Positions 1,114-55,729 of a DNA stretch of 64,000 bases are shown one piece after another. The notes below the pieces were generated by a model. That model was not told where the DNA came from. It ran no database searches and was given only the letters and a program-made list of their open reading frames with translations. The DNA lies in assembly GCA_026168455.1 (NCBI GenBank), contig CM047429.1, positions 34,952,066 through 35,016,065 of the forward strand, in the 5' to 3' direction. The stretch is from Theocolax elegans. Lineage: Eukaryota > Arthropoda > Insecta > Hymenoptera > Cerocephalidae. Positions within the stretch are counted from its first letter, which is position 1, and each line of letters opens with the position of its first letter. The translations under genes were made by a program, and so were the position numbers.

Positions 1114-1136
1114 AATATATATATATATATATATAT

Positions 1137-2193
1137 GGGTGGTTCTCTGTGACATCGAAGATGAAAAAAATAAATATTGCTATAACTGTGGGAATATGTC
1201 TTAGAGGTATCCAGTAGTTCTCCTGAATTTTTTCAGATTTTTTCTGGGCCATTATTTTAAGTTACAGAGAGTCATTAAGTTAATATATAAACATCATTAT
1301 TACATTAACTGAATATACGTATTTAATACAAAAGATATATAAATAAATCGGATATATAATTATAATGAATAATATGATAACGTGACAGTGACAAGTTTGT
1401 GAAATCTAAACAATGTATTGCTGAATAATAATAATAATAATGTTGATACTTTTATAGTAATCCTTCAGATTAGTATTATAATTCTTGTAAGGGATGTAAA
1501 ACTAAAAATTCAGCATTATAAATGTTTAAAAATTAATTTTTTACATTTGTATAATAATATTTGTATTTTTAGCAGCTTACAGGGGATTAGATGGATACTG
1601 AAACAAGTGATGATACTTTTCTACCACTCCAAGGTAAGTGCACAAATTTTTTTGCAATGATCATGCTAATAGATTCATCGTTATAAGTCAACAAATATAC
1701 ATTTCTATTAATATTTCGGGCACTTTTCCCGGATATTTTGACCATAAGTGATCTTAATGATTTAGACCCACTCTGGAAATTTTTAGGCAGTTTCTAACTA
1801 TAAAAAGACATCTTTTAGACAGTATTAGGTTATCAGAGTCCGGAGCAGAATTGCTGATTTTCACTATTTAAGGTTTAAATGGCTTACAAGAGTGTGACGG
1901 CATACATTTATGTCTTTAAAAGTATTTTTAATGAAAAGTTCGGAAAATTTTACAAAAAAAGTGATACTTATGTTTTTAGTGAGAAATGCACCCCTGGGAG
2001 CTAAAAATTCATGAAAATGGGCATATAATGCAAAAAAGTGCTAAAATGTCAACATTGACTCTCTGTAACATAAAATAATGGCCCAGAAAAAATCTGAAAA
2101 AATTCAGGAGAACTACTGGATACCTCTAAAACATATTCCCACAGTTATAGCAATATTTATTTTTTTCATCTTCGATGTCACAGAGAACCACCC
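1137..2193. mobile_element. Non-autonomous DNA transposon (MITE-like) with 138-bp terminal inverted repeats
   Basis: The arm at 1137-1274, starting GGGTGGTTCTCTGTGACATC, reappears as its reverse complement at 2056-2193 with few differences. Both outer ends abut (TA)n runs (about 1115-1136 and 2194-2211), consistent with insertion at TA. The interior of about 780 bp is AT-rich, with no transposase and no convincing ORF. The superfamily is not assignable from what I see; TA targeting suggests Tc1/mariner-like mobilisation. Confidence 0.8.
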
Positions 2194-2213
2194 ATATATA
2201 TATATATATATTA

Positions 2214-2687
2214 CAGTTCTAAGAGGTTGTCAATAGAATAATATTTATTATCTTGTAATCACAATTGGCATACATTCTACTTAAAATAAAATTATTTCAA
2301 TCTTTATATAAAAAAAACGATATAAAAATAATATGTATATATCTAAATTAATGACGGAAATAAACTACAAGGAAATAATATTTTTTTATTATATAGAAAG
2401 GTCATGACAAGAAAGCATATAGTCATTTAAATTAAATAAATACGCGATTATTAAATTGCACACGAATAAGGCATATAAACAAAAAAAAATAGGGTCTTTT
2501 TCTCTTTACTCTTCTCGCCTAAGATAACAATGATATTAATTTACAAAGGAAAGTAAGGAAAAGGTTTAAATTTTTCAATGTCAGTTGAGCTTAGTCAAAT
2601 ATAAATTTAACTGCTATAAAAAAATGATTTACAATAAAATAGAATCATTGGAGTCTAACACATAACTAAACCTAAAACCCATATCCT
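2214..2687. other. AT-rich spacer, no gene seen
   Basis: Low-complexity AT-rich DNA between the inverted-repeat element and the 73-bp tandem repeat. I see no coding potential or recognisable repeat in it. Confidence 0.5.
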
Positions 2688-2988
2688 ATCCTTCCTAAGG
2701 AGTGCTCAATTGCACCCTTTCCTCCTCGTTGCAGTAAAAGCTCCAGCAACACGGTCACTTATCCTTCCTAAGGAATACTTAATTGCACCCTTTCCTCCTC
2801 GTTGCGGTAAATGCTCCAGCAACACGGACACTTATCCTTCCTAAGGAGTGCTTAATTGCACCTTTCCTCCTTGTTGCGGTAAATGCTCCAGCAACACGGT
2901 CACTTATCCTTCCTAAAGAGTGCTTAATTGCACCCTTTCCTCCTTGTTGCGGTAAAAGCTCCAGCAACACCGTCACGTATCCTTCCTA
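2688..2988. repeat. Tandem repeat, period 72-73 bp, four copies plus a partial
   Basis: The word ATCCTTCCTA recurs at 2688, 2761, 2834, 2906 and 2979. Each unit contains a TTGCACC-TTTCCTCCT block and a GCTCCAGCAACAC block. ORFs on both strands here only mirror the repeat. Confidence 0.9.
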
Positions 2989-3147
2989 CATACCGTTCAA
3001 AATGTAAACCTATGTAAATAATTACAACTGAACTCACCTTGACTCTAGTAATTCTGTTAATTAGTCATACTTTCTTACAGGACCCCCAGGTATAAATAAA
3101 TAAGGAGAGTTGGCATACTAGAAACAAAGAATCTCGCAGTAGACTCA

Positions 3148-3444
3148 ATGGATATGGGAGATTCTGTACAACATAATAACGATTGCAAAGAAACGAGAAG
3201 AGGCGGAAAGAAAAAGATTTTATCAAAACTAATTATTGAAAAGAGAACTTTATTAAAAAAATTAAGTAAAGTAAACTCGCAGTTAGCTTCCATACACATG
3301 TTGGATAAAGACGTGGACTCGAATTTAAAGTATAAAGAAATTTCCGATGTTGATTTTAATAAACAAATGCAGAAGAAATTTGATAAATTAATTAATTTCG
3401 CGGAAAAAGTTCAAAATCCAACTATTAATAAAAACAACAATTAA
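3148..3444 (+). CDS. Unrecognised charged, coiled-coil-like protein (98 aa), possible first gene of the virus-derived cluster
   Basis: The ORF opens with ATG at 3148 and ends TAA. It is Lys/Asn-rich, with a predicted helical heptad-like stretch (residues about 28-48, rich in Leu/Ile/Lys) and no Cys pairs or membrane segment. A 3'-splice-like TTTCTTACAG lies about 60 bp upstream, so an upstream exon is possible. It is on the same strand as the envelope and IAP-like ORFs downstream. I do not recognise the family, and it could be a fragment of a longer protein. Confidence 0.4.
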   Translation: MDMGDSVQHNNDCKETRRGGKKKILSKLIIEKRTLLKKLSKVNSQLASIHMLDKDVDSNLKYKEISDVDFNKQMQKKFDKLINFAEKVQNPTINKNNN

Positions 3445-3844
3445 AACCTTTTTGAGACTATAAGGGAGATTTTAAATAAATAATATTCGCAAGTTTGTAT
3501 AGTTTGATAAAAAATACAGTAAACAAAAAGATGTATAAATAAGATAAATCTACAATTGATACTGTAAGCCTTGTACAATTGTTTAGTCACTAGTTGGAAC
3601 AAATTAAAATAAAATAAAAAAAACTAAGAGAGGAAAATGAATGTGTGCCCATTGGTTCGAGTATGGTATAAAGTTTAATTTGTACATGATATATGTATGA
3701 GTATTGTGCGTGTGCACATAGCGCAAAAAGTTATAGTAAAAGAAAATAAACAATGAAAACTGATCTTCCTTCAATACATAGACTCAATCTTTTAATTAAT
3801 ATCAACCACGAATAAGCAAAGAAATTTCTGTAGGCTGCCTAAAG

Positions 3845-4555
3845 ATGAAAGTTGCACTTACCAAACGACAGCAACGCAAGAAAAGACAGGAGGAGAGAAA
3901 TAAGAAAGAAGGGGAAAAGGACCCATTAGAAAATATTATTAAATACGGAGTCAAATGTTTCCAAGATGAGGCCAAGGGAACAACTCTCGCTTATTCCCGA
4001 AGGCTAGCAAATGAAACAGAGTTTCTAACGTCTGTTATATACAATCACAGTTTAAGCTTTAGGTTGGCTATTAAAGAAGCCTACCTTAGCGCTATAGGTT
4101 TCAACGATTGCATACCTCAAAGGTTAAGACGATTTATAAACTTTAGAGCGCAACTGGAAATGCAACATCCGGATTACCCAGAAAAAAGTGACGACGAACT
4201 CGTAAATGAAGTAGAGAAAAGATATAGAGAAAGCTCCGCATTCATGGAACTAGGGAAAACGTATACAAAGTACTTAGAAATAAAAGAATATGGTGGTCAA
4301 GGATTTCGTGACCAAACGTACCATGGAAGGTGTAAATATTGTAAACAGAAAATTCCGGTGTGGCGAGAGTGCGCAAAATGCGCCAATTACTATCTACAAC
4401 GTCAAGGGGAAGGGATATATATAGAATTCATGGAGTGTACGGACGATGAACACCAACGACATCCAGAAGTAACATCCCATTGTCCGACTGGTTGTTTTGC
4501 GGGAGGTTCCTTAACCGTATTACGGGATGAAAGATGGTTAACGGGAGATTGGTAA
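3845..4555 (+). CDS. Intact unrecognised 236-aa protein with a Cys-rich, probably zinc-binding C-terminal half
   Basis: ATG at 3845 and stop at 4553-4555, with no internal lesion. Residues 1-25 are strongly basic (KRQQRKKRQEERNKK). The middle, about 35-150, is mixed helical. The C-terminal third has CKYC (about 166), then CAKC (about 179), a C-x5-H near 200 and a CPTGC near 216: two CxxC pairs spaced about 9 residues apart, followed by more Cys/His, which resembles a zinc ribbon. A basic N-terminus with a zinc module suggests nucleic-acid binding; that is inference only. An AATAAA lies about 70 bp after the stop. It lies upstream of two envelope-like genes on the same strand. I cannot name the family. 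Confidence 0.6.
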   Translation: MKVALTKRQQRKKRQEERNKKEGEKDPLENIIKYGVKCFQDEAKGTTLAYSRRLANETEFLTSVIYNHSLSFRLAIKEAYLSAIGFNDCIPQRLRRFINFRAQLEMQHPDYPEKSDDELVNEVEKRYRESSAFMELGKTYTKYLEIKEYGGQGFRDQTYHGRCKYCKQKIPVWRECAKCANYYLQRQGEGIYIEFMECTDDEHQRHPEVTSHCPTGCFAGGSLTVLRDERWLTGDW

Positions 4556-5046
4556 TGATAAAAGAACAGAGACGAAGGAAGATCGGAAAAACTATAACGA
4601 TAAGATAAATACAAGAATGTTAAATAAAATTTCTTTTTTTTCTTCTCCTGCCTATGTACCAAATCAAAAAGAAATAAAATAAAACAAAATCAATATAGGA
4701 AGGGGATTCTGAGTTCGTAAGCCTATACCTTAAGAGAAGGACGACACTTTCTGACTAACCTTTGTACTAACCACACTGCCCCAGGCAATTGTACAACAAT
4801 AAAAAAATACATACATAGTTTACTCCTATCATTTAGTTTAATTTATAGTATCATTGTTTTCGGTTTAAATTACAAAATAAACACACCTAGAACCGGCACA
4901 TATAAAAAAATAAGTACGCAAACAAGAAATTAAAAGCAGCGTTCGATAAACCAGAAGGATCCATAAAAAAAAAGAAAAAAAAAGAGAGACAGGGAAAGGG
5001 GCGGAAAGATTTATCGATATCTCTTTTACTTTTTCATAACAAAAAA
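4556..5046. other. Intergenic AT-rich spacer with purine-rich end
   Basis: About 490 bp without a gene. It contains several AATAAA words shortly after the preceding stop and an A/G-rich run (about 4966-5010) directly upstream of the envelope-like gene. Nothing else is recognised. Confidence 0.4.
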
Positions 5047-6737
5047 ATGAGGAACTTCAACATAATGTTTTTATCCCTCTTAACATTTTGTACGGGAAAC
5101 GAAGTAGAGCCAAAAGGAATCGAACTTCAACAAATACCTCCATCGGGTATATTCTTCGAACGACAGGAAGATGTAAAACTAACTCCAGTCGCGTGGAAAA
5201 TTATTATTAGCATGACTTGCATACATGAAGATATGAATCTAACGGATATTTGAACTACGTTTAGCGAACTGAAAAACGATTGCCCGTTAGGTCACGAAAA
5301 ATGTGAAGAACTGTTTGGAAATTTTAAGAATTTACAAGAAAAATATACTAGAACTTTACACATCTTAAACTCTACAGAAAGTACTTGCATAGACGTAAAA
5401 TCAGATTTGCATGAAAACGAGTTAGTACGTTATGACTTAGAAAGTAAATTAATTAACAATTACATAGATAGAATACTAGTAGGGGTTAGGACTAAAATAG
5501 TATTTATAGAAAGTAATATGATGGGAATTAATATATACATAGACAAAGCAAGATTGTATGATGAATTCAACATTATGCAAAAAATGAAGCAAATGAAAGA
5601 GGAAATTTATCTTGAACGATACTCGCAAATAATGAACAATATAAAGACTACGTTAGGAAGAATGTTGGACAACCAGATAAGCTACAGTGTAGGTACACTT
5701 GTTAATTTAGAAAAAATAAAAGAGCATCAAATGTATACTACTTTATTATCATCTAATAGTCTCAAACAAGTTGTTAATTACATCGAAAAATATGAGAAAA
5801 CCAATGAATTCCCGTTGAAAAGAGGAGAGGGAAATTTAAATAGACTAGCTAACATAACAAGCCTACATACTGGATACATCAATAATAAACTATTTATTCA
5901 AATAGAGGTTACCTTGGTTGAAAAATCTACTTACTCATTGTATAGGGTATCTCCTCTTCCAATTCCTCAAAACGTATATATCAATGAATCAAACATTGCC
6001 TATGTTGAACCCGAGAATAACATATTCTGCAACAAGAGGCAAATTATTACGGTTTCTCAAGCACCGACCTTAAGAATTGTAAAAAGTTTCAAGGAAAATT
6101 AATTTGCAAAAAAGAAAGACTGCATTTAAAAGCAATAGATAGTTGCGAATCGGAATTGATGTCTCAACCGTCTCAATGTAATTACCGTAACTGCAATATC
6201 AAATATAAAACCAATGCCAAACCAACGATAATAAAACTTGAAAAATTAAATAAAATATTATACTCAACGCCCATGACTACGAGAGTGTCGATTGGCTGTG
6301 ACGGTTTAACAGGGACGATCATACCGTTACGTGGAGTCGGAATAATACGCACAAAAATAAATTGTACGTTTAAAATAAATGGGGAAGTTATAAAAATACA
6401 TGAGGTACCAACGGAATATTCATATCACTTGTTATTTCCTCAGACGTCGTTAAATATTAGCAAACTATCAAATATCTTTAACAATACAAATACTAAAAAT
6501 TTATTCCATAAATTAGTTAAGCAAAAACACTCGGGGAATTTTTGGGATATGGAAAATTACTGTAGGGATAAATTGATCAATACGGAAAAAACCGCTGTAT
6601 TCACTACATTGTTTCTCATCTGTTTAATCACAGGAGTAGTTATATTTTTATTCATCGCGGGGATCTTCATACTTTTGTGTTACTTTAAAGAAATATTAGA
6701 TACCATTCCGGAAGAAATAGAAATCCGTTTCGAATAA
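5047..6737 (+). pseudogene. Broken F-type envelope glycoprotein gene (baculovirus F / errantivirus Env-like)
   Basis: ATG at 5047 begins a hydrophobic signal-like N-terminus, followed within 35 residues by a GIFFERQEDVKLTPVAWK segment. This has the layout seen near the start of F-type envelopes of baculoviruses and insect errantiviruses (Pfam Baculo_F type, class I fusion). The frame is interrupted by TGA at 5251-5253 and resumes in phase. The reading then shifts by one base near 6075-6095 and continues to 6737. The C-terminal part has many Cys, a strong membrane span (about 6595-6690) and a short cytoplasmic tail. I do not see a clear furin-type site. With two lesions it cannot make the full protein. 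Family membership is inferred from layout and motifs. Confidence 0.7.
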
Positions 6738-6807
6738 ACAAATAGGAAATAACTTCATAACTTCGTACAAGAACAATGAAAAGCATAGAAAATTATCTTA
6801 TTTACAG

Positions 6808-7428
6808 ATGGCAAAGAGATTATTCCTCCTGCTTTCACTCGTAAGTGTAATTAATTACTCGTCGGGACTTGACAGATAGACGAACATAGACGGATATGAC
6901 TGCGGGGAACAACTTTCAAATCTAACAACAATATCGTTTGTGGATGTTAAAGAATGTGATATACATGAACCATATATTAATGTAACAAAAATTTACGCGC
7001 AGTTACTATAATTGAACGATTACAGTACCACGCATGTATATAAATGCATAATAAAAATCACACGTACAGTTACACATTGCGGTATGCACGGACATGCATC
7101 TCGCGTCCTAAACGGAGAAATTAGTTATTGTAAAGAAATAAGTAGGGAGGAACCAATCGTGTTAGCGGGAGGGAACGATAATAGCGGAAATTGTATTGGA
7201 GGTTCATTTTCGGATTCATACGGTACCTATAAAGACGCCTATGTCGCAGGTCATGTTGAAATAACAATATACAATTACTATGCGGCTGTACATCTGGAAT
7301 ATAATAAAGTAAGATTAGACTCCGGGGTTACATGCACACTCGCGGATTTAGAATGTACAGATATCGATGCCTCACAAGTTTTCTGGGAAGCGCTTCCGGA
7401 GGATTCATGCGGAGTTAACAAATATTAA
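6808..7428 (+). pseudogene. Chuvirus-type glycoprotein, N-terminal part, two in-frame stops
   Basis: ATG at 6808 starts a typical signal peptide of about 20 residues. In the same frame there is TAG at 6877-6879 and TAA at 7009-7011; both would be single C-to-T changes of CAG/CAA. The ectodomain starts with a GYDCGEQ segment, then a DVKECDI segment and a HCGMHGHAS segment. This Cys pattern is characteristic of glycoproteins of Chuviridae (negative-strand arthropod viruses), also carried as env by some arthropod BEL/Pao elements. Reading stops at 7426-7428, where an internal deletion begins. Only the first third or so of a usual glycoprotein remains. Confidence 0.75.
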
Positions 7429-7480
7429 ATAAGATGGCATTAGGAGCTTCGGGAAGGAAGATAAACCCCAAAGAATTACT

Positions 7481-7891
7481 ATAGGAAATTTGTTCAACCA
7501 AGAAGCCTTGAATAACCTGGCTGTATCGACATTCAACAAACTATGGTCAGAATTTTTAACGTTCAGTAACATCTCTGCCGGTTTCATAGGATTTTTTATG
7601 ATATGTCGCCTCATCAAGCTAATTATCGATACGATTATGCATGGTTTCATGTTGCACGGAATTTACGCAATATGGAATTCAATCACTCAACTATTACTTT
7701 ATTTGGGAACGCAAAAGTTAAATAAAGATAGGAAGGAGAACGAAAAAAGGGAGGTTGAGATAGAGAAAAATGAAAAGAGCCAATTTATCACTTCCGAGTT
7801 TAAGACTGTAGATACAAAAATTTTAGAGAGAGAAACGTGTTTATATCCAATTTTAAAAATAAACAATGAGAACAGAGCAAATTCAATGTAA
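7481..7891 (+). pseudogene. Chuvirus-type glycoprotein, C-terminal membrane-anchor and tail fragment
   Basis: In a different frame from the N-terminal piece, an open stretch without a proper ATG (it opens around 7481-7490) encodes an FNQEALNNLAV segment, a Gly/Ile/Phe-rich membrane span, an amphipathic stretch with HGFMLHGIYAIWNS, and a charged tail of about 50 residues. This matches the order expected at the C-terminus of chuvirus-type glycoproteins. With the piece ending at 7428 it flanks a deletion that removed the middle of the gene. Confidence 0.65.
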
Positions 7892-7941
7892 TAATAACTC
7901 TCATTTTTTTTTACTTACACTCAAAATAGGAAAGCCAGTAA

Positions 7942-8256
7942 ATGAGGATTATACAAGAAGTTAAAGAAAGGAAAAATTTACCCTCTTACGATGGTGCGAT
8001 CAGGAAAAAACAAACCAACAGAAAAATACACAAAATGTATTACTTTAAAAAGATGTTTTACAGCATAGATCTGAACACTCCTTTATGTGGAACTTGCATA
8101 AAAACAAAGGCAGGAAAACCGATTATACAACACATAAAATTTAGAGACATAAATATGGATCTTGAAATTCAAAAATGTTATAACTGTAAAAAAAATATCG
8201 AGAAGCAAAAAATAAAAAAAATAATAATAAAATATCCACTCGAATTAGGGCAATAA
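7942..8256 (+). CDS. Unrecognised 104-aa basic protein with two CxxC pairs
   Basis: ATG at 7942 and stop at 8254-8256. It is Lys-rich, with CGTC near residue 53 and CYNC near residue 79, which could form one zinc site. The 3' end runs through A-rich homopolymers (about 8190-8235). There another frame opens and stays open until a TAG at 8328-8330, immediately before the IAP-like frame. It is therefore possible that this ORF and the next were once one gene, separated by a homopolymer frameshift and one stop; that is inference. Confidence 0.4.
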   Translation: MRIIQEVKERKNLPSYDGAIRKKQTNRKIHKMYYFKKMFYSIDLNTPLCGTCIKTKAGKPIIQHIKFRDINMDLEIQKCYNCKKNIEKQKIKKIIIKYPLELGQ

Positions 8257-8414
8257 TAGAACAAAACAAAGAAAGAGAAATCGAGATTGTTACTATAAAA
8301 AATGAATTCGAATTACAGAGAAATAATTAGCAAATTATTCCGTTGGAACCAATACAACAAGAAACGCCCATTTTTGTTGTCAAAAACGAAATAGACATCG
8401 AAAAACCAGAACAA

Positions 8415-9290
8415 ATGGCAAGTTCAAGTTCAAAAATGACGCAAACGGAACCTATGGAAATAAATAGAGACGAAAGACCAGAGGATATCGCAGAATCACA
8501 GAACGTTAAGGAAAGAAGTTGGCCCGAATTGGAATCCTTTCTGAGTGAACAAGAAGTTATGGAATTACTACAAAATGCGACCAGTGATATTTTTCCCTCA
8601 ATACAGGACGAAGAAAATAACATCCTCGTGCCAATGATAACACAAGAAGAGTTACCAGAAATATTAGAGATATTAGCATCCTTAGAAACTCAACTAGACG
8701 AGGTAGCCTATAATAATACAGAAGAGAAAGTAAAAGAAATAATTATGGATCTACAACAGGACTTTGATGAAACTGATTGCGGAGTAAATTTGTCGATAAA
8801 GAAAAATCGATTAGATACATTTAAATATTGGCCGCATGCCTTTATTTCAATCGAGGATCTAGCAGAAGCCGGATTTTATTATACGGGAGAGAACGACAAA
8901 GTAAAATGCTATATATGCGGTGTAGGAATACGAAAATGGGAAAAAACCGACGAGCCTATGGAAGAGCATCGTAGATGGTCGCCGAAATGTGAATTCATTA
9001 CAAAGAAGGAACGAGCAGAAGACTGTTGTGGAATCTATGACATGGAGAAATTGAGCAAAATAATAAAAGGTTCGGAACATGCCAGTTTATCGAAAGATCT
9101 TAAATGCAAAATTTGCAAACGTAGTCCAATAGAGGGAATATATCTTCCATACAAACATGCCTTAAGCTGTTTAACTTGTTATATGGAAACAAAGGAATGC
9201 ATGATTTGTAAAAGAGCAATAACGGAATGGTTAAACAAATACTTAGTAACAAAAAGAAGAGGTCGCTTCACAGAGATAGAATTCGCCTAA
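8415..9290 (+). CDS. IAP-like protein: one BIR domain plus a degenerate C-terminal RING (291 aa)
   Basis: The first ATG in the frame is at 8415. The frame is open back to a TAG at 8328 and runs to the stop at 9288-9290. Residues 1-130 are acidic and unrecognised. Residues about 132-197 form a BIR domain with the RLDTF-x2-WP start, an AGFYYTG core and the exact C-x2-C-x16-H-x6-C zinc spacing. Residues about 231-275 are a RING of the IAP type, but the Cys normally before xH (LPCxH) is Tyr (LPYKH), so one zinc ligand is lost. IAPs block caspases and ubiquitinate partners; here E3 activity is doubtful while BIR binding may remain. IAP genes are carried by insect hosts and by baculoviruses and other large insect DNA viruses. 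Its place in line with two envelope genes suggests viral origin or capture. Confidence 0.8.
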   Translation: MASSSSKMTQTEPMEINRDERPEDIAESQNVKERSWPELESFLSEQEVMELLQNATSDIFPSIQDEENNILVPMITQEELPEILEILASLETQLDEVAYNNTEEKVKEIIMDLQQDFDETDCGVNLSIKKNRLDTFKYWPHAFISIEDLAEAGFYYTGENDKVKCYICGVGIRKWEKTDEPMEEHRRWSPKCEFITKKERAEDCCGIYDMEKLSKIIKGSEHASLSKDLKCKICKRSPIEGIYLPYKHALSCLTCYMETKECMICKRAITEWLNKYLVTKRRGRFTEIEFA

Positions 9291-10692
9291 AATAAATCTA
9301 TACAACAATAAATATATGAAAATTGCAAACTATACAATTGCAGTAAATATTATAATAAGTGTAAACAAGAGTATAAAATATTACAAACACACATTATATA
9401 CAAGTATATATACTAACTAGATGTAGTAAATACAAACAAAAAAAACTATATGTATACAATATGAAAAATAATAAAGACTAACATTGTTATAAAACAGTAA
9501 GGAATATTTATTTTTATTATCCCTAACCATATGTAGAAATAAAAAAAAACAAACAAAACAAACAATTATTGTGGTAAACAGATTAAGAAATGTAAATAAC
9601 GTAAAAGAAAAATAATAATAAAGAGTAATATATAGAAATACTAACAAAAGTAAATAAGTATCCATAAAAAAGGGGTAGAGCTAATCTAAATAAAAAAAAA
9701 AAAATAGAAAAGAAATAGAGAAAAATATAAAAAAGGGGGAAGAAATGTAAAGAAAAAGAATAGTACAAGGACGACGGAGCAGCGCGGCGGGGAACGAAGT
9801 TTGGATCCCCGTAAGGATTCGATGCAAACCGCAATTCGAGCCTAGTTGCTGCGCTAAGCTGTAAGAGCATCGGTTGGCCTCGTAAGTGTTCGGGCCACTC
9901 TCCGACTCGAGCCTGGCGAGTTCGGCGGGGCCGACCATGCGTTGCATTGTCGACGTTTCGATATACTCTCTCTCTCTATCTCTCAAAAACGTTGTGTATG
10001 ATAGAAACTTCTTCTCTATCTTAGTATTTCATACATTTTTGTTTATTAGATTGTGTTAAGTACTATTGTTTAATTGTAATTGTAAAAATAAATAAAAAAA
10101 TAATAAGGTATAAAACAATTGTAAACTGTAAATAGCAACCAACATAACAATTTTAAAACTAATATTTCAGTATTTTTGTATATGTTTATTTTTTTTTCAC
10201 ATATCCCAACCCTGTAATAGGAATAATTCACTGTAGATCTGCGAATTATTCCTATCCTTTGGTTTAAGCACATTCAACAAGAGAAAACGCTGTAGATCTG
10301 CATCTTCTATGCGCCGTTGCTTGTACGTGTCAAACACGCCTTAGCTATGCGCATTTGACACTTCATTCTTTTTCTCTCTCTCCCATTGCTTTAAGTTGTA
10401 GCTTTTACCTCGTGTTCAAAAGCATCACGCGTAGAGTAGAACAGACGCCCCTCCTGGCGTCCCCTCTCTCTCCAGACGCGTGCCTACTGTTTGCGTTGGG
10501 GAAAACCCATACGCTGAGTACAAGCCCTGTCTGGCATCGACGCGCTCTCTCGCACCGCAGCGCTCGGCTCTGTGGAAGCGATCCGCCGCTCATAGCTCAG
10601 AAGCGGCCATATTGGGCCTGCTTCCCCCGCCAGCTCGACGCACGCGCACCCTAGTGTCCACGCATCGAGTTGAACAGTAGCCCTTCCGGCAT
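9291..10692. other. Non-coding: AT-rich, with two GC-rich islands
   Basis: Mostly AT-rich. Two GC-rich patches (about 9765-9960 and about 10420-10680) contain ORFs, but these are compositional and match nothing I recognise. A purine run with G5 (about 9733-9741) resembles a polypurine tract but no convincing LTR follows. There is a short direct repeat, CTGTAGATCTGC, at about 10232 and 10291. Confidence 0.4.
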
Positions 10693-10695
10693 ACA

Positions 10696-10700
<5 letters not shown>

Positions 10701-10741
<41 letters not shown>
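10701..10741. repeat. (TC)n microsatellite
   Basis: Uninterrupted TC dinucleotides, about 20 copies. Minus-strand Arg/Glu-repeat ORFs here are artefacts of it. Confidence 0.95.
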
Positions 10742-10742
<1 letters not shown>

Positions 10743-10962
10743 GGTGAATGAAGAAGGGAATGAAAAAGGGAAAAATAAAACACTCTATTATGAGCTTTAC
10801 AAACAAGTTTATTCCCTGTTAAATTTTTTAGTAACAATAAAAAAAAACAAAAACAGTACAAATCTGATCACCTTGTCACATTTCATCCTCGGATGATATA
10901 TCTATTATATCAATTATACGCAGCACTGGCGAATAGCAGGGAGATCCTCCCCGGTTGGACGG

Positions 10963-11457
10963 TCAGTAAAATGCGGCCGGAACTTCAGGCGCCTGCTCTG
11001 GTGAGGGAGATCTCGGCGAAAAATCCTCCTCCAGTGCCACCAAATCTTCCTCCCTCACCTCCTCCTCCTCCTCCTCTTCTTCCTTCTCTTCCTCCTCCTC
11101 CATCGCCTCCAACTCCTCCTCACCCATTTCCTCCTCGGATGACGATGATGAATCCGAAGCCTCGGAGCTCGCGGGCAACTCCACTATGGCCGCAAGATCC
11201 CGCAAAGATAAATCTAATAGAAGCAGAAGGGTGTCCACATCCAGAGGGACTCATTCACTTCTACACATGGCATTCAATTCCTGGGCAGCGGCTATGAACC
11301 AGCTCCAAACTTCAAATAGATCAGGACTAAATTCCCGATCATCACGTCGGCGCAAAGTCCACAGTACGAGCAAACGAGCTTTTTCGAACTCTATCCTGAT
11401 AACAGAGAAAAATACATACTTAGCATTACGGAAATAAATATAAAAACATACATGCAA
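10963..11457 (-). pseudogene. Unrecognised acidic protein remnant with one in-frame stop
   Basis: On the minus strand one frame runs from about 11457 to 10963 with a single TGA near 11253. Upstream of the stop is a basic/aromatic segment (LRRRDDREF ... VWSWF). Downstream there is a Leu-rich segment, a Ser/Asp/Glu block and a long Glu tract. The Glu tract is a (GAG/GAA)n expansion, so the frame is partly repeat-driven. Continuity across the stop is the main reason to think it was coding. No family recognised. Confidence 0.35.
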
Positions 11458-11543
11458 AAAAAATAAACATTCTCTTATATAAGAGATACACTATTTTCTT
11501 TTTCTTATTAGAACAAGTAAAAAAATAATAAACAACAAAAAAG

Positions 11544-11579
<36 letters not shown>

Positions 11580-12658
11580 CACTTACTTCGTAAAAAAATA
11601 GGGACGAGACTCCTCGGAGAAACAAATCGAATCACTGCCTGACGAATACTGACGAAAAAATGCAAGGAGCCACCCGTATTTAAAAGAAACCTTATGGCAC
11701 TAAGGGAAAATAATTTACTAGGGTATAGAAGATTACTTGGAAAATTTAAACGACCAACGAAAACGTTCATTATTGACAGAACTAGGAGAAGTACTTGAGA
11801 GTAATAAATAAGTCAAAGTGATTCTTTGTTTATAATAGCCGAAAGAAAAACTCATAACGAAAGCCTTGAATAGCTATATTCAACGTTTTCGTTACATTTC
11901 AGAAGGGGGAGGGGTGCGAAGAAATTAAATATTTCTTCGCTCCTACTAACCTTACTTTAAGAAAAGATTACTAAGCAGGTTACTGTAAGATGCACTAACA
12001 ATGTCCACATTGAAGCGAGGGTCTGTATTGCATAAAAATAATTTTTTTTCTCCCTTTTCCTTTTTCCATTTTGCTATAATAGTTCATTATGCTGCAATTA
12101 TTAATAGACTAAGCAAAAAATATGTATACTAATGGATAACTCTTAATCAGTATTTCAGAAAAATACGTAAGCATTCAAATATTATCAAAGAAAATTGTAA
12201 CTTTTGTAAAAAAAAATGGCTACGAGAACAAAAAATACAAATAACATATATTTTTAACATGAATTGATGTATACTAAAAATTAGGAGTAAAAACTAAAGA
12301 AGAATAAATTCTTTATATACAGAACACATTTAATAATAATTATACAATTTTTCGGAATATCTAGAATAAAAATTGTAATAATAAAACCCTTTTAATTTTT
12401 AGCTTTTATTTTTATAGGTGAACTATATCAATACTGTTAAACGGTTCGAAATAATGTAATAGATGTAAGAAAAAATAATAACAAACGAAGTTGAACTACG
12501 AAAGAAATAATTGTAATATGGTTTATAAAGCTCACCATAAGAAATAAAGAAAAATTAATCGAAATAATGTTTATAATTTAAAATTAAGTATGATATCTTA
12601 TGTCAAGAGAAATAATAATATAATAATAATATTGTTTAACGACGAGGGCGTCGTTTTT
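11458..12658. other. AT-rich DNA, no gene seen
   Basis: Contains an (AAT)n run at about 11547-11576 and otherwise low-complexity AT-rich DNA. A small hairpin with arms AACGACG and CGTCGTT sits at about 12637-12656, just before the polypurine tract. Confidence 0.4.
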
Positions 12659-13487
12659 AAAAAGGGGGGGAGTTGTCGCGTCCCGACAAAAATTATATTA
12701 TTATTTTTCGTACAAAAGTACTGCGTAGTTTAGAATAAAATTACGGCGTAGAAGAAAAACGAAATAAGGTTGATAAAGAATAATTGTAAGTAAATGCAGT
12801 AATATAAAATATAATTTATAGAGCTAAGGGACAGATTAATTTACGAGTGTTTCAAACGAAAAAGAGACTGATAAGTAGAGTTGAAGATATAATTCAAAGT
12901 CAATACGCATATAAGCGGGATCGCCGATAGTGAGATCGAAACGAAGGGTTACGCAAGAGTTTTTTTTGTACTGCACTATAAAATCAATGCTCGGAGAAGA
13001 GCCGGCGATGGGAAACATAGACTAGAAAATTTGAGCATTAGAAGGAAGTAATAAATTAAGCCGTTCTTTGGGTAATATCGCAGTAATAAAAGGGGGACAG
13101 CAAATTCTCCGAATTAACTACGAAGCGATACAGAAAATGCATGGGATTCGATAATTTTAATCACGCACATCTAACGGTCCAATCGGGTGCAAGCACAGAA
13201 AAATCGAGAACTACTTACACAATTTCCATATAAGGCAAAGTGTAAGACAAGGACAGATGCATAGATTTTCAGGGTATATAAAGAGGACCCAGAATAGACA
13301 CAGTCACTCTAATTTTTCATCTAAAGTTTTCATAAGGCGAAGCTCTGCTAAGACTTCGACATCTGGAAATCATTGGACTCCAACAGCATACACATGTAAC
13401 GTCGACGCCCGCAGGTCTAGCAGGACATTATCCAGCAATTTGACACTGCTATCCACGTTCGAGGCGGACCTTCGTTCCTCACCGTAT

Positions 13488-13494
<7 letters not shown>
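12659..13494 (+). mobile_element. Candidate LTR: polypurine tract then TGTCGCGTCCCGAC start, TATA box inside
   Basis: A perfect purine run with seven G (12661-12672) is followed by TGTCGCGTCC at 12674, the arrangement expected at a plus-strand 3' LTR. About 600 bp in, TATATAA at 13275-13281 is followed about 30 bp later by an ACAGTCAC initiator-like site, as in LTR promoters. The 3' end is not clear; the sequence runs into (CA)n(TA)n at about 13488-13534. I see no matching 5' copy in the window. If real, it could be the 3' LTR of an element covering upstream DNA. Confidence 0.45.
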
Positions 13495-13535
<41 letters not shown>

Positions 13536-13547
13536 TTATATATATGT
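13488..13547. repeat. Compound (CA)n(TA)n microsatellite
   Basis: CA repeats pass directly into TA repeats, with short interruptions at the end. Confidence 0.9.
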
Positions 13548-14359
13548 CTATATATTTGGGTACTTAAGGTATATTTTTTTCGGCTATCTATACGCTTGTA
13601 TTATTCGTAAAGGCAAACCTGATATTTTATGTTATTTCAATTACTGAACCAACCGTTTTCTCTTACAACAATTATTATTTGATACTGCAATTTATTAATA
13701 ATTATTATTCTTTGCATTGCATTTATTTGCAATATGTACAGTTTGAATTGTAATTTATTAAAAATAATTTATGTTTTCAACAATAGCAATTTTTAATTTA
13801 ATCTGCATTTATTTATAATAATTCTTATTTTGATTATTAATGTTTATAAAAAAAATAACCTTGTGTATATTTTATTCTATAATTTGTTAACGTGTTCGCA
13901 GTAGAATTGTTTGTTCAATCAAATTTAAAATTGTTATTTGACTTAAATAATTTTACGTAATTGTTAATAAAATAGTGTAATTTTATGTGTTTTTGCCCAT
14001 TAAAAAGCTGTAAGAATTTAGTTACAGGTGTTCATTTAAAGGAAAACAGCATATTATGATGTTAACATATTTAAATAAATAATGCATGATTAATACGAAA
14101 TAAAACATATATTATTTTATTTATCCCACAGTATATCCTGCATCTCTACTCTCAAAATAACTTCGCTCGCTACTCCCGGAGACGTAAGGCTAGTCCTAGT
14201 CAAACAAGAGCGAAAGGAACGCGAATGGTTTATTAACCATTGGCCTTCTTGCAACATTTTTTATGGTAATTGGTACAAGTCTGGAATTGACAATATAAAA
14301 CAATATTTTAAATAAAACAAGTATGTATTTATTAGAAACAAAAGGTTATTTAAGGAATG
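13548..14359. other. AT-rich DNA with one dispersed-repeat copy
   Basis: No gene seen. The segment at about 14192-14256 (TAGTC...CAAACAAGAGC, then an AATGGTT-TATT-AACCATT hairpin, then GCCTTCTTG) recurs in diverged form at about 60328-60392. Confidence 0.45.
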
Positions 14360-15935
14360 AATTTGATTATAATAATCAAGATAAATATATGGGCCCTGTA
14401 ACTAAAGGAAAAAATAAATTGGATATAATTATGGATTAGAACGCAAATTTTGAAAGAGGGTGCAATTCACGAATTGCGGGAGAAATGGAAGAAACAGGTT
14501 TTTATTTATATGCCACTAAAATTATATAAATAGTTGTATAAAATGAATAAAAATTAATAAAAAAATTTATTTATTTAAGAAGAAATTTTTATTACTCTAA
14601 AAGTACAAAATATTAATGACATATAGAACTTTTGGTGATATCCTTCGTCATTAAATAAATTAATTTTAAGAAGTAAAGTTCTATTTAGATCCGTTTAAAA
14701 TAATCTAAAATTTTAATAAGTTTTTACTAAATACTACAATTATGTATATGCACATTACTATTTTTGGTAAGTTAATTGGTCATTAACACACACACACACA
14801 CACGCACACATATTTATATATATATATATATATATATATCTATATATACAGCGGTGTAATATATATAATATATATATATATCAAGGTGCGCGGTAGCGCA
14901 ACCAACGCAAGTATAATGCGCGCTAGCACCTATTAGACATCTAACTGCACCTGCGGTTTTTTTATTTTTGAATATTAATATATAATATGTTATTTACGTA
15001 ACTTTTTATATCATATATTATTTCTTTTTTAATATTTTTTCAGTTTATTAAGTTTTCGATAAATTATTTAGTAATACTTTCAATAAAACTTCATGTAAAT
15101 ATCTGAGATGTCAAATTCTTTTACTCGGCTATGAATTTTTCGATATCTTTTTCGTCTCCTATATATATATGACTACTCGAAAAAGTTGAGACAGAGCTAT
15201 AGGGGAAAACGAAAGAGTGAGTGAGACACGCGTGATCTAGTTATTTTTTCATTATTATCTTAAACGGTCATCTTTTATCTTACACGGTCGTCAATCATCT
15301 AATTTGCCGAGAAGCGTGCGCGTAACAGAACCTGTCAGTGACAATTATTGGTTATGTTTAATGTTGATAATTTTAATTTTTGGTTTTGGACTACAGTTTT
15401 CACAGGTATGAAAGCTTCACAGAAATGTTTATTAATTATTCGAATAAATTATTTTAGAGAAGTTAAAAATATAATTATTTGTTAATAAAATTATTTATTT
15501 AACAATTTAGATTTTGGAGCCCAGTCGTCAAACATATCAAGCAATATTGAAACAACAATTCACTTCTGCAAAAATGTTTAGGAAAATGCCTGAAATTTTA
15601 CCAATACAGAAACCCATTCATTTAATTACTAGTAGTATGGTACATTTAGTAGACAATAGTTAGATTTAAGAGGACCTAGTGTTGGAGAAACAGAAAAATT
15701 TTTATCTACCAAAAAAATCAGGAGAAAAATAATGATTTTTTGCTGTGTTGTAAAATATAGCACCATAAATAATTGTTTATTTATACATAAAAACATTATT
15801 CGTCCAGAAAATAAGTCATTATAAACGTTTTTGAAAAAGTATGTATGTGTGTATGTATGTATGTAGTCAAGTTAATAGAATAACTCAGCCAATTTTGAAC
15901 CAATTTGGCTCAAATTTTTATCTTCTACATAAATA
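14360..15935 (+). repeat. 1.58-kb duplicated segment, copy 1
   Basis: Nearly identical to 16268-17839. It includes a short decayed coding-like stretch at its left end, a (CA)n(TA)n tract (about 14788-14838) and a GC-richer imperfect palindrome with GGTGCGCGG...GCTAGCACC (about 14884-14930). The two copies differ by a few substitutions and by microsatellite length. What the unit is cannot be decided from sequence alone. Confidence 0.9.
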
Positions 15936-15948
15936 TTTATTTTGAATA

Positions 15949-16267
15949 TTTGAAAGATGGTTCTATTAGAATATGTTTAGATGCCAGAAATTTAAATTTA
16001 AATTTAAAGAATGATTACGAATCTCCACCGGGAATAGAAGAAGTATTAGCACGATGTAAAAATCATGTATGGATGTCTAGTTTTGACATGACGGCTAGTT
16101 TTAACCAAATTCCTTTAGTAGACGATAGTAAACAATACACTGCATTTATATGTGATAATAAGGTATATGAATATAATGTAGTTCCATTTGGAATAAAAAT
16201 TAGCAGTGCAGCTCTTTTGAGGGGATTAGATAAAGTCATAACGGGATTAAATGATTTTTTATTAACG
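15949..16267 (+). pseudogene. Fragment of Gypsy pol (reverse transcriptase) between the two 1.57-kb copies
   Basis: This stretch matches 24588-24902 of the older Gypsy element essentially base for base. It encodes RT motifs including IRICLDARN and the SSFDMTASFNQIPL catalytic-Asp region, and ends before the FVDD box. Both ends join the duplicated segment with very short shared words, as in filler DNA captured during break repair or template switching. Confidence 0.9.
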
Positions 16268-17839
16268 AATTTGATTATAATAATCAAGATAAATATATGG
16301 GCCCTGTATCTAAAGGAAAAAATAAATTGGATATAATTATGGATTAGAACGCAAATTTTGAAAGAGGGTGCAATTCACGAATTACGGGAGAAATGGAAGA
16401 AACAGGTTTTTATTTATATGCCACTAAAATTATATAAATAGTTGTATAAAATGAATAAAAATTAATAAAAAAATTTATTTATTTAAGAAGAAATTTTTAT
16501 TACTCTAAAAGTACAAAATATTAATGACATATAGAACTTTTGGTGGTATCCTTCGTCATTAAATAAATTAATTTTAAGAAGTAAAGTTCTATTTAGATCC
16601 GTTTAAAATAATCTAAAATTTTAATAAGTTTTTACTAAATACTACAATTATGTATATGCACATTACTATTTTTGGTAAGTTAATTGGTCATTAACACACA
16701 CACACACACACACACACATATTTATATATATATATATATATATCTATATATACAGCGGTGTAATATATATAATATATATATATATCAAGGTGCGCGGTAG
16801 CGCAACCAACGCAAGTATAATGCGCGCTAGCACCTATTAGACATCTAACTGCACCTGCGGTTTTTTTATTTTTGAATATTAATATATAATATGTTATTTA
16901 CGTAACTTTTTATATCATATATTATTTCTTTTTTAATATTTTTTCAGTTTATTAAGTTTTCGATAAATTATTTAGTAATACTTTCAATAAAACTTCATGT
17001 AAATATCTGAGATGTCAAATTCTTTTACTCGGCTATGAATTTTTCGATATCTTTTTCGTCTCCTATATATATATGACTACTCGAAAAAGTTGAGACAGAG
17101 CTATAGGGGAAAACGAAAGAGTGAGTGAGACACGCGTGATCTAGTTATTTTTTCATTATTATCTTAAACGGTCATCTTTTATCTTACACGGTCGTCAATC
17201 ATCTAATTTGCCGAGAAGCGTGCGCGTAACAGAACCTGTCAGTGACAATTATTGGTTATGTTTAATGTTGATAATTTTAATTTTTGGTTTTGGACTACAG
17301 TTTTCACAGGTATGAAAGCTTCACAGAAATGTTTATTAATTATTCGAATAAATTATTTTAGAGAAGTTAAAAATATAATTATTTGTTAATAAAATTATTT
17401 ATTTAACAATTTAGATTTTGGAGCCCAGTCGTCAAACATATCAAGCAATATTGAAACAACAATTCACTTCTGCAAAAATGTTTAGGAAAATGCCTGAAAT
17501 TTTACCAATACAGAAACCCATTCATTTAATTACTAGTAGTATGGTACATTTAGTAGACAATAGTTAGATTTAAGAGGACCTAGTGTTGGAGAAACAGAAA
17601 AATTTTTATCTACCAAAAAAATCAGGAGAAAAATAATGATTTTTTGCTGTGTTGTAAAATATAGCACCATAAATAATTGTTTATTTATACATAAAAACAT
17701 TATTCGTCCAGAAAATAAGTCATTATAAACGTTTTTGAAAAAGTATGTATGTGTGTATGTATGTATGTAGTCAAGTTAATAGAATAACTCAGCCAATTTT
17801 GAACCAATTTGGCTCAAATTTTTATCTTCTACATAAATA
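16268..17839 (+). repeat. 1.57-kb duplicated segment, copy 2
   Basis: Second copy of 14360-15935. Copy 2 begins AATTTGATTATAATAATCAA directly after the pol fragment and ends at the word ACATAAATA, after which the flanks differ. Confidence 0.9.
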
Positions 17840-21403: not shown

Positions 21404-22813
21404 ATGGCTGTCTCGAATAGGAGATCAGGATCATTTATGTTAAATTTAGAACAAGCTAAAGAACATAATGAAATAGAATCAGTAGATCAAATTCGATTAA
21501 ATTGGGAACAAGCAGTTACTCAGGAATTAAAAGATTTATTTGATAAAGATAATGAATTAGATAATAAAATTGATAAGTATGAAAATACCTCAGAAATAAT
21601 AAAAAAAGAATGTAAAGATTATTATGATGCTTTAAAAGAAAATTTCTCTGAACAACTAGATATTCTTTCACAACATGTAAAGACATTAGTGGAAGATAAT
21701 AAAATGAATAAACAAAGGATAAAAGTATTAGAATCCGAAAATGATGGATTTACACGTAGATTCTCTGAAATGAATAAGGAATTAAATAATTTAGAAGAAA
21801 TTATTAGGGATAAGATTGATGCAGATAGAATTGAACCAATAATAAATAAAATGATTATTGAAAATAATAATGTTTTAATTGAAAAAATTAATAAAATTGA
21901 AAATAATATAAAAAATAATACATTATTAGGGGTAAATTGTACTCAGTCTGAAAATAATCATTTTCGGGTAAAATTAATTATTCCTAAATTTTATGGATTT
22001 ACAAACGAAAGACCTATGCGTTTCTTGTACGAATTAGAAAAATATATAAATACGACTGCTTCTAATTTTGAGGAAGTCATATGTATTATTTCACAAGCAT
22101 TAGATAAATCCGCAAAAGAATGGTGGTATTTACAAGAACATGAGATAAATGATTTTAATGATTTTAAAAATAAATTCATAGAACGATATTGGAATTCTTC
22201 TACTCAACGGCAAACACGTAGGAATATTGAATTTGGGCAATATTTTGCAGGAAAAATGAGTAGGGTAGAATATGCTACACATATGCTTGGTTTAGCAAAA
22301 GAATTAAATTATGAATTAACTGAAGCTGAGTCAGTTGAGAAAATTAGTGAACAATATGAACGTTCTATTTAACATACAATTTTAGGGCAACAAAATAAAT
22401 CAAAAGAAAACTTATTAAAAATTTTAGCAGATTTTGATTCTGATTTTGATAAAAACCGAAAATACGATAAGATTACAAATCGATATGAAAACCATATGCC
22501 TACTCAACGCGAAGGGTATAAAACTTATGAAAATAAAAATATAAATTCAAATATACCAAAAGAGAATCAAAATTATACTGCATATCAAAATAAAATGCAT
22601 AGGGAAGGTTATCAAAGAAATAGCACGCCCATGATTAATTCTATACAAACATATAAAAATAAAAAATGTATTATTAAACAAGGATCGGAGAATAAAAAAC
22701 TAATTGAACAGACTGATAACAATTATGATAAAATTGAAGTCCTAGCAGATATACATAATTCGAATGATATTCAAAATGAAAAAACTAGTAGAGTATATAA
22801 TCAGGGAAACTAA
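21404..22813 (+). pseudogene. gag: gag of the older Gypsy element, one in-frame stop
   Basis: ATG at 21404. The frame would encode about 470 residues but is broken by TAA at 22370-22372 and resumes in phase to TAA at 22811-22813. Residues about 40-180 are a long charged coiled coil. A capsid-like region follows (about 190-320, including FYGFTNERPMRFLYELEKY and EWWYL). The C-terminal third is Asn/Lys-rich with no CCHC knuckle, as in errantivirus-like Gag. GGGAAAC directly before the terminal stop is a frameshift site into pol. Confidence 0.85.
22804..22813 (+). promoter_or_regulatory. -1 ribosomal frameshift heptamer G_GGA_AAC followed by stop
   Basis: In the gag frame the codons read cag-GGA-AAC-TAA, so GGGAAAC at 22804-22810 fits X_XXY_YYZ and lies immediately before the gag stop. 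The -1 frame starting at 22810 is the pol frame and stays open into the protease. Confidence 0.75.
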
Positions 22814-26998: not shown

Positions 26999-27290
26999 CA
27001 ATAAAAAACAATGAAAAAAAAAAGAAAAAAAGAAAAAAAAAATAATACATAATAGTTTTCTGAAAATAATAGAATAAATTAAAAGTTGTCAAATTAAAGC
27101 GAATTTAATGATACAAAATAAAAGAGTGTTAGTAACTATGAAAATCAAAACAAAAGGTCAATCAACCAACGAAGTTTAAACACAGGGTGAGAAGTAAACT
27201 ATCCTTAATCCAGGCTTGTCAGTATCAGTTTAACTGTCTCCATAGTCAGTCAGGTTCAAACCGAAACGGATCTATAAAGAAAAAGTGAAA

Positions 27291-27728
27291 ATGCCAGATT
27301 TTACTCAAAATACTGAGAAAATTGCTACTTGTGAAGCTTCAACTCAAACATCTACTAATTGTGAAAGTGATGAAGAAGTGAAGTGGTTTCGTCATCATGA
27401 AAAATGTATAAGACTGATCCACCAAAAAAATAAATGGGTAACCAGTTTTTCCACAAGAATATGTAATGGTACTTATGTACAAACAAGAAAAGTAAAAACA
27501 AGAACGGTACCTTCACAAACATTTAGAGCAGAAAAAAGAAAATTCATAAGTGAAGAGATGGAGAAAGTGGAAGAAAAAATAAAAAATTTAGAAAAGAAAA
27601 TTAAGGAAAAACAAATAGAAAAAATAACACCAACATCGACGGATGAACTTGAAGAACTTTTCAACAGTTTAAATCATCCAGGGATGTCAGCAGAAGAATT
27701 TGATATCTTCATGACCCAACAAAATTAA
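27291..27728 (+). CDS. ORF3 of the older Gypsy element, 145 aa, function unknown
   Basis: ATG at 27291, placed where an errantivirus would carry env, but the product is short and has no signal or membrane span. The middle has a KWFRHHEKC segment, and residues about 85-120 form a Lys/Glu coiled coil. The frame is intact in an element whose gag and pol are broken. It may be a remnant or an accessory protein. I do not recognise it. Confidence 0.55.
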   Translation: MPDFTQNTEKIATCEASTQTSTNCESDEEVKWFRHHEKCIRLIHQKNKWVTSFSTRICNGTYVQTRKVKTRTVPSQTFRAEKRKFISEEMEKVEEKIKNLEKKIKEKQIEKITPTSTDELEELFNSLNHPGMSAEEFDIFMTQQN

Positions 27729-36144: not shown

Positions 36145-36256
36145 TGTCCGGATTTTTGGACCAGGTTTTTTTTTGTATCTGTGTAGCCACTTCCCATCCC
36201 AAATTCGTCAGGGATGCAGAAACCACATCACGGGTATGTGGAATCTGGAAGGGGGG

Positions 36257-51980: not shown

Positions 51981-55729
<3,749 letters not shown>

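What the first reader, a model, noticed from the sequence alone, without database searches (positions are those of the whole stretch)
3148..9290. Virus-derived cluster with two unrelated envelope genes and an IAP-like gene
Seen: six same-strand coding regions in 6.1 kb, including an F-type (class I) envelope remnant, a chuvirus-type glycoprotein remnant and a BIR+RING ORF. Known: F-type envelopes occur in baculoviruses and errantiviruses, chuvirus-type glycoproteins in Chuviridae and some BEL/Pao elements, and IAPs in insects and large DNA viruses. I know of no described element or virus carrying all three. Inference: either an undescribed virus or retroelement lineage, or successive captures at one site.
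Basis: partly seen in the sequence, partly recalled or inferred. Interest (0 to 1): 0.88.

Follow-up and report, generated by a model that had tools for sequence, protein, structure and literature searches.

The report
Giant retroelement with two envelopes
The cluster is the broken 3' half of a very large retrovirus-like jumping element, present in many copies in this probably insect genome, that carries two unrelated envelope genes and an anti-cell-death-type gene, a combination I did not find described in the papers I could read.

Summary
Window 2199-14292 is a 5'-truncated, broken copy of a 21-26 kb LTR retroelement with a Ty3/gypsy-type polymerase. I examined six other copies. All six have a perfect and different 4-bp target duplication; gag and pol domains were identified in the three that were scanned. 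The cassette ORF1, ORF2, F-type envelope, chuvirus-type class III glycoprotein (G) and BIR-RING (IAP-like) gene follows pol. ORF2, G and IAP lie in this order at 50 of 110 ORF2 loci. Compared with five copies, ORF2, F, G and IAP show dN/dS 0.24-0.39, so all four were under purifying selection while the element multiplied. LTR pairs differ by 0.1-1.6%, so some insertions look recent. F shows no furin site or fusion peptide; G matches its family end to end. I infer that G is the fusogen and F an accessory envelope protein, as GP64 and F-like are in group I baculoviruses, and that IAP blocks cell death. 'Successive captures at one site' is refuted. Chuvirus-type G on LTR elements is already published; I did not find G with F and IAP, but one key survey was not available.

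The parts
2199..14292 (+). 5'-truncated copy of the LTR element (5' LTR, gag and pol missing)
   Evidence: blastn of the window against stretches of six other copies: homology from 2199 to 14292 at about 81-98% identity
2687..2988 (+). 73-bp tandem repeat (4.2 units) between pol and ORF1; longer arrays in some other copies
   Evidence: Tandem Repeats Finder; direct repeats; multiple in-register hits in copies A, B and E
3148..3444 (+). ORF1, small basic protein (98 aa here, 91 aa in copies A, B and E), function unknown
   Evidence: a splice-acceptor-like site lies 78 nt before its ATG in copy A; no evidence of constraint
3845..4555 (+). ORF2, 236 aa, basic N-terminus and CxxC motifs, function unknown; open in this copy
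   Evidence: 153 matches in the genome; no homologue in the large protein collection; dN/dS 0.25-0.31 against copies A-E; fold not predictable from one sequence
5047..6737 (+). F-type (class I) envelope gene, broken here; 563 codons and open in 3 of 6 other copies
   Evidence: Baculo_F matches of pieces; frames; dN/dS 0.26-0.27 against copies A-E; no RXXR site, one strong hydrophobic stretch
6793..6807 (+). Predicted 3' splice acceptor ending directly at the G start codon
   Evidence: found in 7 of 7 copies, score 9.5-10.1; above the 95% level of random windows on the same strand (9.2-9.3) but below that of the other strand (10.3-10.4)
6808..7891 (+). Chuvirus-type class III glycoprotein (G) gene, broken and internally deleted here; 661 codons from ATG in other copies
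   Evidence: PF24664 matches; G search of own genome; deletion relative to other copies; dN/dS 0.25-0.39 against copies A-E
7942..9290 (+). IAP-like gene (CxxC region, one BIR, C-terminal RING), one 449-codon gene, interrupted here; one RING cysteine is tyrosine in this copy
   Evidence: BIR and RING matches; 449-aa frame in other copies; motif check; dN/dS 0.24-0.32 against copies A-E
9291..12658 (+). Long 3' region without a convincing sense gene
   Evidence: ORF listings; two antisense frames of copy B give only weak Pfam matches below cut-off
12659..12673 (+). Polypurine tract next to the 3' LTR
   Evidence: read in the window and in six of six other copies
12674..14292 (+). 3' LTR (TGTCGCG...TTGACA)
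   Evidence: homology to the 3' LTRs of copies A-F

Best explanation
The cluster is the decayed 3' half of a retrovirus-like Ty3/gypsy element of 21-26 kb (the longer copies carry insertions). The element has LTRs, gag with a zinc knuckle, protease, RT-RNase H, integrase, then ORF1, ORF2, an F-type envelope gene, a chuvirus-type class III glycoprotein gene and a BIR-RING gene, a polypurine tract and an LTR. Shown: this anatomy (pieced together from several copies), independent insertions with target duplications, and purifying selection on ORF2, F, G and IAP. Inferred: genomic RNA makes Gag-Pol, and the envelope proteins come from spliced RNAs that use acceptors just before F and G. G, the complete class III protein, is the membrane fusogen. 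F, without a recognisable furin site or fusion peptide, is kept as an accessory envelope protein, the division of labour of GP64 and F-like protein in group I baculoviruses. The BIR-RING protein blocks apoptosis of the producing or newly entered cell, so that the cell (for example in the ovary) survives long enough to pass the element to the germ line. ORF2 may be a regulatory or RNA-handling protein (a guess from its basic N-terminus).
For: LTR pairs with TG...CA ends and a polypurine tract; a 4-bp TSD in 6 of 6 copies, all different; gag, zinc knuckle, protease (weak), RT, RNase H in copies B, C and E taken together, integrase in C and E; RT closest to Ty3 among solved structures, E 2e-81. 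ORF2-G-IAP in order at 50 of 110 ORF2 loci, G-IAP at 74 of 93 G loci, other arrangements of G and IAP 0. dN/dS, window copy against copies A-E: ORF2 0.25-0.31, F 0.26-0.27, G 0.25-0.39, IAP 0.24-0.32, bootstrap upper bounds below 1. The strongest acceptor-like site in 7.4 kb of copy A is 9 nt before the F ATG (9-10 nt in 6 of 6 non-window copies; lost in the window copy), and one abuts the G ATG in 7 of 7 copies. F: no RXXR, one strong hydrophobic stretch, near the C-terminus. BIR and RING metal ligands complete in copy A. LTR divergence 0.0012-0.016.
Against: None of the six copies is open in gag, pol and every cassette gene. No transcript, protein or particle evidence. ORF1 shows no constraint (dN/dS 1.8, 1.8 and 3.9 against A, E and B, 0.39 against copy F, all with wide intervals). 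Against copy F the G interval reaches 1.00. ORF2 and IAP have no strong acceptor directly upstream, the G site does not exceed the other-strand background, and the donor is undecided. Full-length F gives no Pfam match. Absence of a furin motif does not prove absence of fusion. The window RING has lost a cysteine. The selection tests share the window copy and are not independent. The six copies were chosen for long G frames, so their intactness is biased upward.
Confidence: 0.6

Rival explanations
1. Same element, but F is also a working fusogen (cleaved by another protease or after uptake), so the two envelopes serve different cell types or stages.
For: F and G are about equally constrained against copies A-E (F 0.26-0.27, G 0.25-0.39) and both have a well-placed acceptor-like site.
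Against: F has no RXXR site and one strong hydrophobic stretch only, while insect ERV envelopes are reported to conserve furin site and fusion peptide (PMC12992720, passage).
Confidence: 0.2
2. F, G and IAP are passengers: the element spreads only inside the germ line, and the cassette is carried along or is now used by the host.
For: Many listed matches are fragments or have stops. No infection evidence.
Against: Four cassette genes show purifying selection between subfamilies, and the cassette is retained in young insertions (LTR divergence down to 0.0012).
Confidence: 0.17
3. Successive, unrelated insertions of viral genes at one chromosomal site.
For: The window copy alone is broken and lacks pol and the 5' LTR.
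Against: Same order at 50 loci, and 6 of 6 copies examined have their own target duplications.
Confidence: 0.01
4. Remnant of a non-retroviral virus (for example a chuvirus-like or large DNA virus) integrated once and amplified by segmental duplication.
For: G belongs to a chuvirus-type family; F and IAP genes also occur in baculoviruses (IAP recalled).
Against: gag, RT, RNase H, integrase, LTRs, polypurine tract and TSDs surround the cassette. Scans of viral contigs for G, IAP, F and ORF2 found no relative, though these reach close relatives only.
Confidence: 0.02

Closest known systems
Errantiviruses / insect endogenous retroviruses (Metaviridae: gypsy, ZAM)
   Same: Ty3/gypsy-type pol, LTRs, short TSD, F-type envelope gene downstream of integrase
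   Different: Here a second, unrelated envelope gene, a BIR-RING gene and two further ORFs follow pol; 21-26 kb; F without recognisable furin site and fusion peptide. The ICTV profile lists at most gag, pol and env (PMC7879559, whole text)
Anakin (BEL-Pao retroelements with chuvirus glycoprotein in mosquitoes; Dezordi 2020, PMC7642597, passages)
   Same: LTR retroelement with a chuvirus-type G as an envelope gene
   Different: Anakin is BEL-Pao; the passages read describe no F-type envelope or IAP, and the terms 'baculo' and 'IAP' occur 0 times in the main text
Chuvirus-type glycoproteins flanked by Gypsy fragments in Hymenoptera (Dezordi 2023, PMC10084718; abstract, introduction, methods and results read, not the discussion or supplements)
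   Same: Same G family next to Gypsy sequence; the named cellular relatives of this G that I could read are Hymenoptera
   Different: The part read reports mostly fragmentary LTR retrotransposons and mentions no F or IAP companions
Group I alphabaculoviruses (GP64 plus F-like protein; IAP genes recalled)
   Same: A fusogen beside an F-like protein without furin site (PMC4864199, passage); that GP64 is class III is recalled
   Different: Large DNA virus; GP64 is not the chuvirus-type G family (recalled); works like, not a member

Membership tests
Metaviridae (Ty3/gypsy) | LTRs with TG...CA ends and 4-6 bp TSD (as stated for most LTR retrotransposons in PMC12440569, abstract) | tested here: met
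   TSD in 6 of 6 copies; both LTRs full length in 4 of 6, 5' LTR shortened in 2
Metaviridae (Ty3/gypsy) | pol with PR-RT-RH-IN and a Ty3-like RT | tested here: met
   copies B, C and E scanned, RT against PDB; the protease match is below its Pfam cut-off, integrase is deleted in copy B, and pol is interrupted in each of these copies
Metaviridae (Ty3/gypsy) | PBS complementary to a tRNA, and polypurine tract | tested here: inconclusive
   Polypurine tract in six of six copies. TGGTGCATCGGCCGGGAA 26 nt after the LTR in 4 copies fits tRNA-Gly by recall only; no tRNA gene found in 13 stretches to check it
Errantivirus / insect ERV | F-type env downstream of integrase | tested here: met
   (pieces match, full-length queries do not)
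Errantivirus / insect ERV | Env with furin site and fusion peptide | tested here: not met
   no RXXR and one strong hydrophobic stretch in a 563-aa F; motif and hydropathy test only
Errantivirus / insect ERV | Position within the errantivirus clade of RT trees | not tested
   no reference RT set in hand
Chuviridae-type glycoprotein family (PF24664) | Full-length profile match above cut-off | tested here: met
   E 6e-220, 5-648 of 653
Chuviridae (as a virus) | L polymerase and N genes | not tested
   no dedicated search for L or N was made; gag and pol were found instead
IAP family | BIR with CX2CX16HX6C and C-terminal RING | tested here: met
   (copy A); the window copy has one RING cysteine replaced
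IAP family | Binds caspases or IAP antagonists and blocks apoptosis | not testable with these tools
   needs an experiment

The most novel reading that the evidence does not exclude
A 'complex' insect retrovirus lineage that independently reached the envelope arrangement of group I baculoviruses (a class III fusogen with a retained, non-fusogenic F-type protein) and also carries its own anti-apoptotic gene, with the cassette kept by selection for longer than this element family has existed.
Probability: 0.45. Interest if true: 0.87.

Novelty: new variant of a known kind. Interest (0 to 1): 0.74.

Why it matters
Envelope-carrying gypsy elements are textbook cases of a transposon becoming a virus by taking one envelope gene. 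Here one element keeps two unrelated fusion-protein families and a cell-death-inhibitor-type gene, with four of five cassette genes showing constraint. If right, it shows envelope replacement midway in a retrovirus, parallels the baculovirus switch from F to GP64, and gives a retroelement with an apoptosis-inhibitor-type gene, which I did not find described in the papers searched. With many datable copies in one genome, how long each gene stays under selection can be measured directly.

Tried and rejected
Protein search with ORF2: no homologue. IAP search: 4 distant hits with BIR and RING, best 45% identity over 18% of the query, only one with a named organism, a fish; not useful for origin. 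Structure of ORF2: pLDDT 39, not used. Viral-contig scans with G, IAP, F and ORF2: nothing confirmed. PDB search with G: no meaningful match. Rfam and tRNA scans of the window: nothing. Splice donor: several conserved candidates, none decisive. Search of the genome with the window F piece: not completed. Test of insect identity by an odorant-receptor family: not completed, so 'insect, probably Hymenoptera' rests on the named relatives of G. Chary and Hayashi 2025 on envelope-carrying retrotransposons is not held, so prior description there cannot be excluded. A single-site capture history and a non-retroviral virus were rejected by the LTR anatomy and TSDs.
Full report
What was claimed and what is there. 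The ORFs exist as described. Pfam confirms Baculo_F (6156-6737, 8.9e-7; 5407-6102, 5e-4, below cut-off), Monjiviricetes_fusion PF24664 (7012-7428, 5e-32; 7490-7891, 3.9e-21) and BIR plus RING (8343-9290, 4.8e-25 and 8.8e-8). F, G and the IAP-like gene are broken in the window copy, and ORF1 has a one-base difference near its end; ORF2 (3845-4555) is open over its full length.

It is a repeat. ORF2 has 153 matches in the same 658-Mb genome (150 of 195 first-look candidates scored), the G piece 270 (150 of 882 scored), the IAP piece 131 (126 of 213 scored); lower bounds by the tool's own statement. I used 150 ORF2, 93 G and 131 IAP rows; rows that cover only the first part of the G query, and rows not listed, were left out. 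Clustered to 110, 93 and 102 loci, 58 of 110 ORF2 loci have G 1.5-5.5 kb downstream on the same strand, 74 of 93 G loci have IAP 0.5-4.5 kb downstream, and 50 ORF2 loci have both. Other arrangements within 6 kb: 4 for ORF2-G, 0 for G-IAP.

Anatomy. Eighteen 10-kb stretches around six copies (A-F), most of them picked for a long G frame (a bias), were compared with blastn, each stretch on its own. Homology runs over 21-26 kb between LTRs; the longer copies carry insertions. Four copies (B-E) have both LTRs at about 1.73-1.75 kb; in A and F the 5' LTR is shortened. LTRs begin TGTCGCG or nearly so, and the ends read are GTGACA; a polypurine tract precedes the 3' LTR in 6 of 6. An 18-base sequence that fits a tRNA-Gly primer site by recall lies 26 nt after the 5' LTR in 4 copies. 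All six copies have a perfect 4-bp target duplication: CTCG, CCTT, GTGT, ATTG, AACA, GATG. LTR divergence is 0.0012-0.016; at an assumed 3e-9 per site per year this is about 0.2-2.7 Myr.

Genes. Upstream of the cassette, in copies B, C and E: Retrotrans_gag (weak, 0.0016), zinc knuckle, protease (weak), RT and RNase H; integrase in C and E, deleted in B. RT-RNase H is closest to Ty3 among solved structures (E 2e-81). Cassette: ORF1 (91-98 aa), ORF2 (236 aa), F (563), G (661 from ATG), IAP (449). In the six copies G is open in 6, IAP in 5, ORF2 in 4 and F in 3; none is open in gag, pol and every cassette gene. In the genome lists, 8 of the 93 G rows show a 690-aa frame and 19 of 131 IAP rows a 449-aa frame without a stop in the matched part.

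The window copy is 5'-truncated at 2199, beside a 1.1-kb element with 156-bp inverted repeats (1119-2211), and keeps the 3' LTR (12674-14292).

Selection. Nei-Gojobori dN/dS of the window copy against copies A-E: ORF2 0.25-0.31, F 0.26-0.27, G 0.25-0.39 (354 codons), IAP 0.24-0.32, bootstrap intervals below 1. Against copy F: 0.39, 0.38, 0.47 and 0.39, with the G interval reaching 1.00. ORF1 gives 1.8, 1.8 and 3.9 against A, E and B (intervals 0.5-4.4, 0.5-4.3 and 1.0-5.3) and 0.39 against copy F. Among copies A-E the counts are mostly too few to say much. IAP is about twice as diverged at synonymous sites (0.17-0.20) as F and G (0.065-0.084), which suggests recombination between subfamilies. 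These tests share one sequence and are not independent.

Expression. With a generic acceptor table, the best acceptor-like site in 7.4 kb of copy A is 9 nt before the F ATG; it is 9-10 nt before it in 6 of 6 non-window copies and lost in the window copy. A site abuts the G ATG in 7 of 7 copies (above the 95% level of same-strand random windows, not of the other strand), and one lies 78 nt before ORF1 in copy A. ORF2 and IAP have none of note. The donor is undecided.

Two envelopes, probably two jobs. F of copy A has no RXXR motif and one strong hydrophobic stretch, near the C-terminus. Insect ERV envelopes are reported to conserve furin site and fusion peptide (PMC12992720, passage), and the F-like protein of group I baculoviruses lacks the furin site while GP64 does the fusing (PMC4864199, passage). 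G matches its family over its whole length; chuvirus glycoproteins are called type III fusion proteins in PMC13172572 (passage). Hence the inference that G fuses and F assists. This is not shown.

Relatives and age. G has 176 relatives at E<=1e-5 among 7993 scored candidates (120 listed). The named cellular ones that I could read are Hymenoptera, and there is 'Hymenopteran chu-related virus OKIAV146' at 46%; one bee protein carries RT-RNase H domains together with G. In a FastTree of 116 sequences G sits in a group of 8 with support 1.0 together with unnamed contigs. The same genome has many other G genes (68 scored of 1607 candidates, 12 of the 68 from this family) and F genes (72 scored of 480), and among these top rows no F lies within 20 kb of a G; this family's F does not appear in that list. 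The one host-like IAP locus fetched has repeats 35% and 48% identical to the element's BIR, so that locus is not a recent source; other host-like IAP loci were not compared. One decayed locus (C7, about 19.91 Mb) has an ORF2 relative at 45% and, 6.8 kb downstream on the same strand, a BIR relative at 38%; this hints that the cassette predates the family, from a single locus.

Literature. Searches. Chuvirus-type G on LTR elements is published for mosquito BEL-Pao (PMC7642597, passages) and, with Gypsy fragments, for Hymenoptera (PMC10084718, abstract to results). PMC13172572 (passages) speaks of gypsy and BEL elements with type III fusion glycoproteins. Also seen: PMC12440569 (abstract), PMC12859917 (passages), PMC12992720 (passages). 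I saw no element with both envelope types or an IAP in what I read. The survey by Chary and Hayashi is not held, so this is not a claim of absence from print.

Noticed in passing
window 1119-2211: 1.1-kb element with 156-bp, 99% complementary inverted repeats at the 5' break of the window copy; related sequence also lies in an insertion within copy D.
   Followed up: partly
window 2687-2988: 73-bp minisatellite between pol and ORF1 whose number of units differs between copies.
   Followed up: partly
window 21404-27728: Another gypsy-type element (gag, protease, RT, integrase) with a small extra ORF at 27285-27728 after pol; an RT piece nearly the same as its own lies at 15905-16336.
   Followed up: partly
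window 30716-36642: GC-rich gypsy-type element with a 607-aa gag ORF and a 1155-aa pol-like ORF (pol not scanned); near-identical antisense frames at 28221-28757 and 36208-36642 suggest its LTRs.
   Followed up: partly
window 53100-55570: About 2.4 kb of TA dinucleotide repeat.
   Followed up: no
L021 (copy E): A second, partial LTR lies upstream of the 5' LTR with the same short left flank, as if duplicated locally.
   Followed up: no
L038 and L039 (C7, about 19.91-19.92 Mb): Decayed, divergent relatives of the BIR and of ORF2 in the same order and strand, possibly an older sister element.
   Followed up: partly
window 9291-12658: 3.4 kb after the IAP gene without a convincing sense gene; copy B has antisense frames of 93-180 aa in the equivalent part.
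   Followed up: partly
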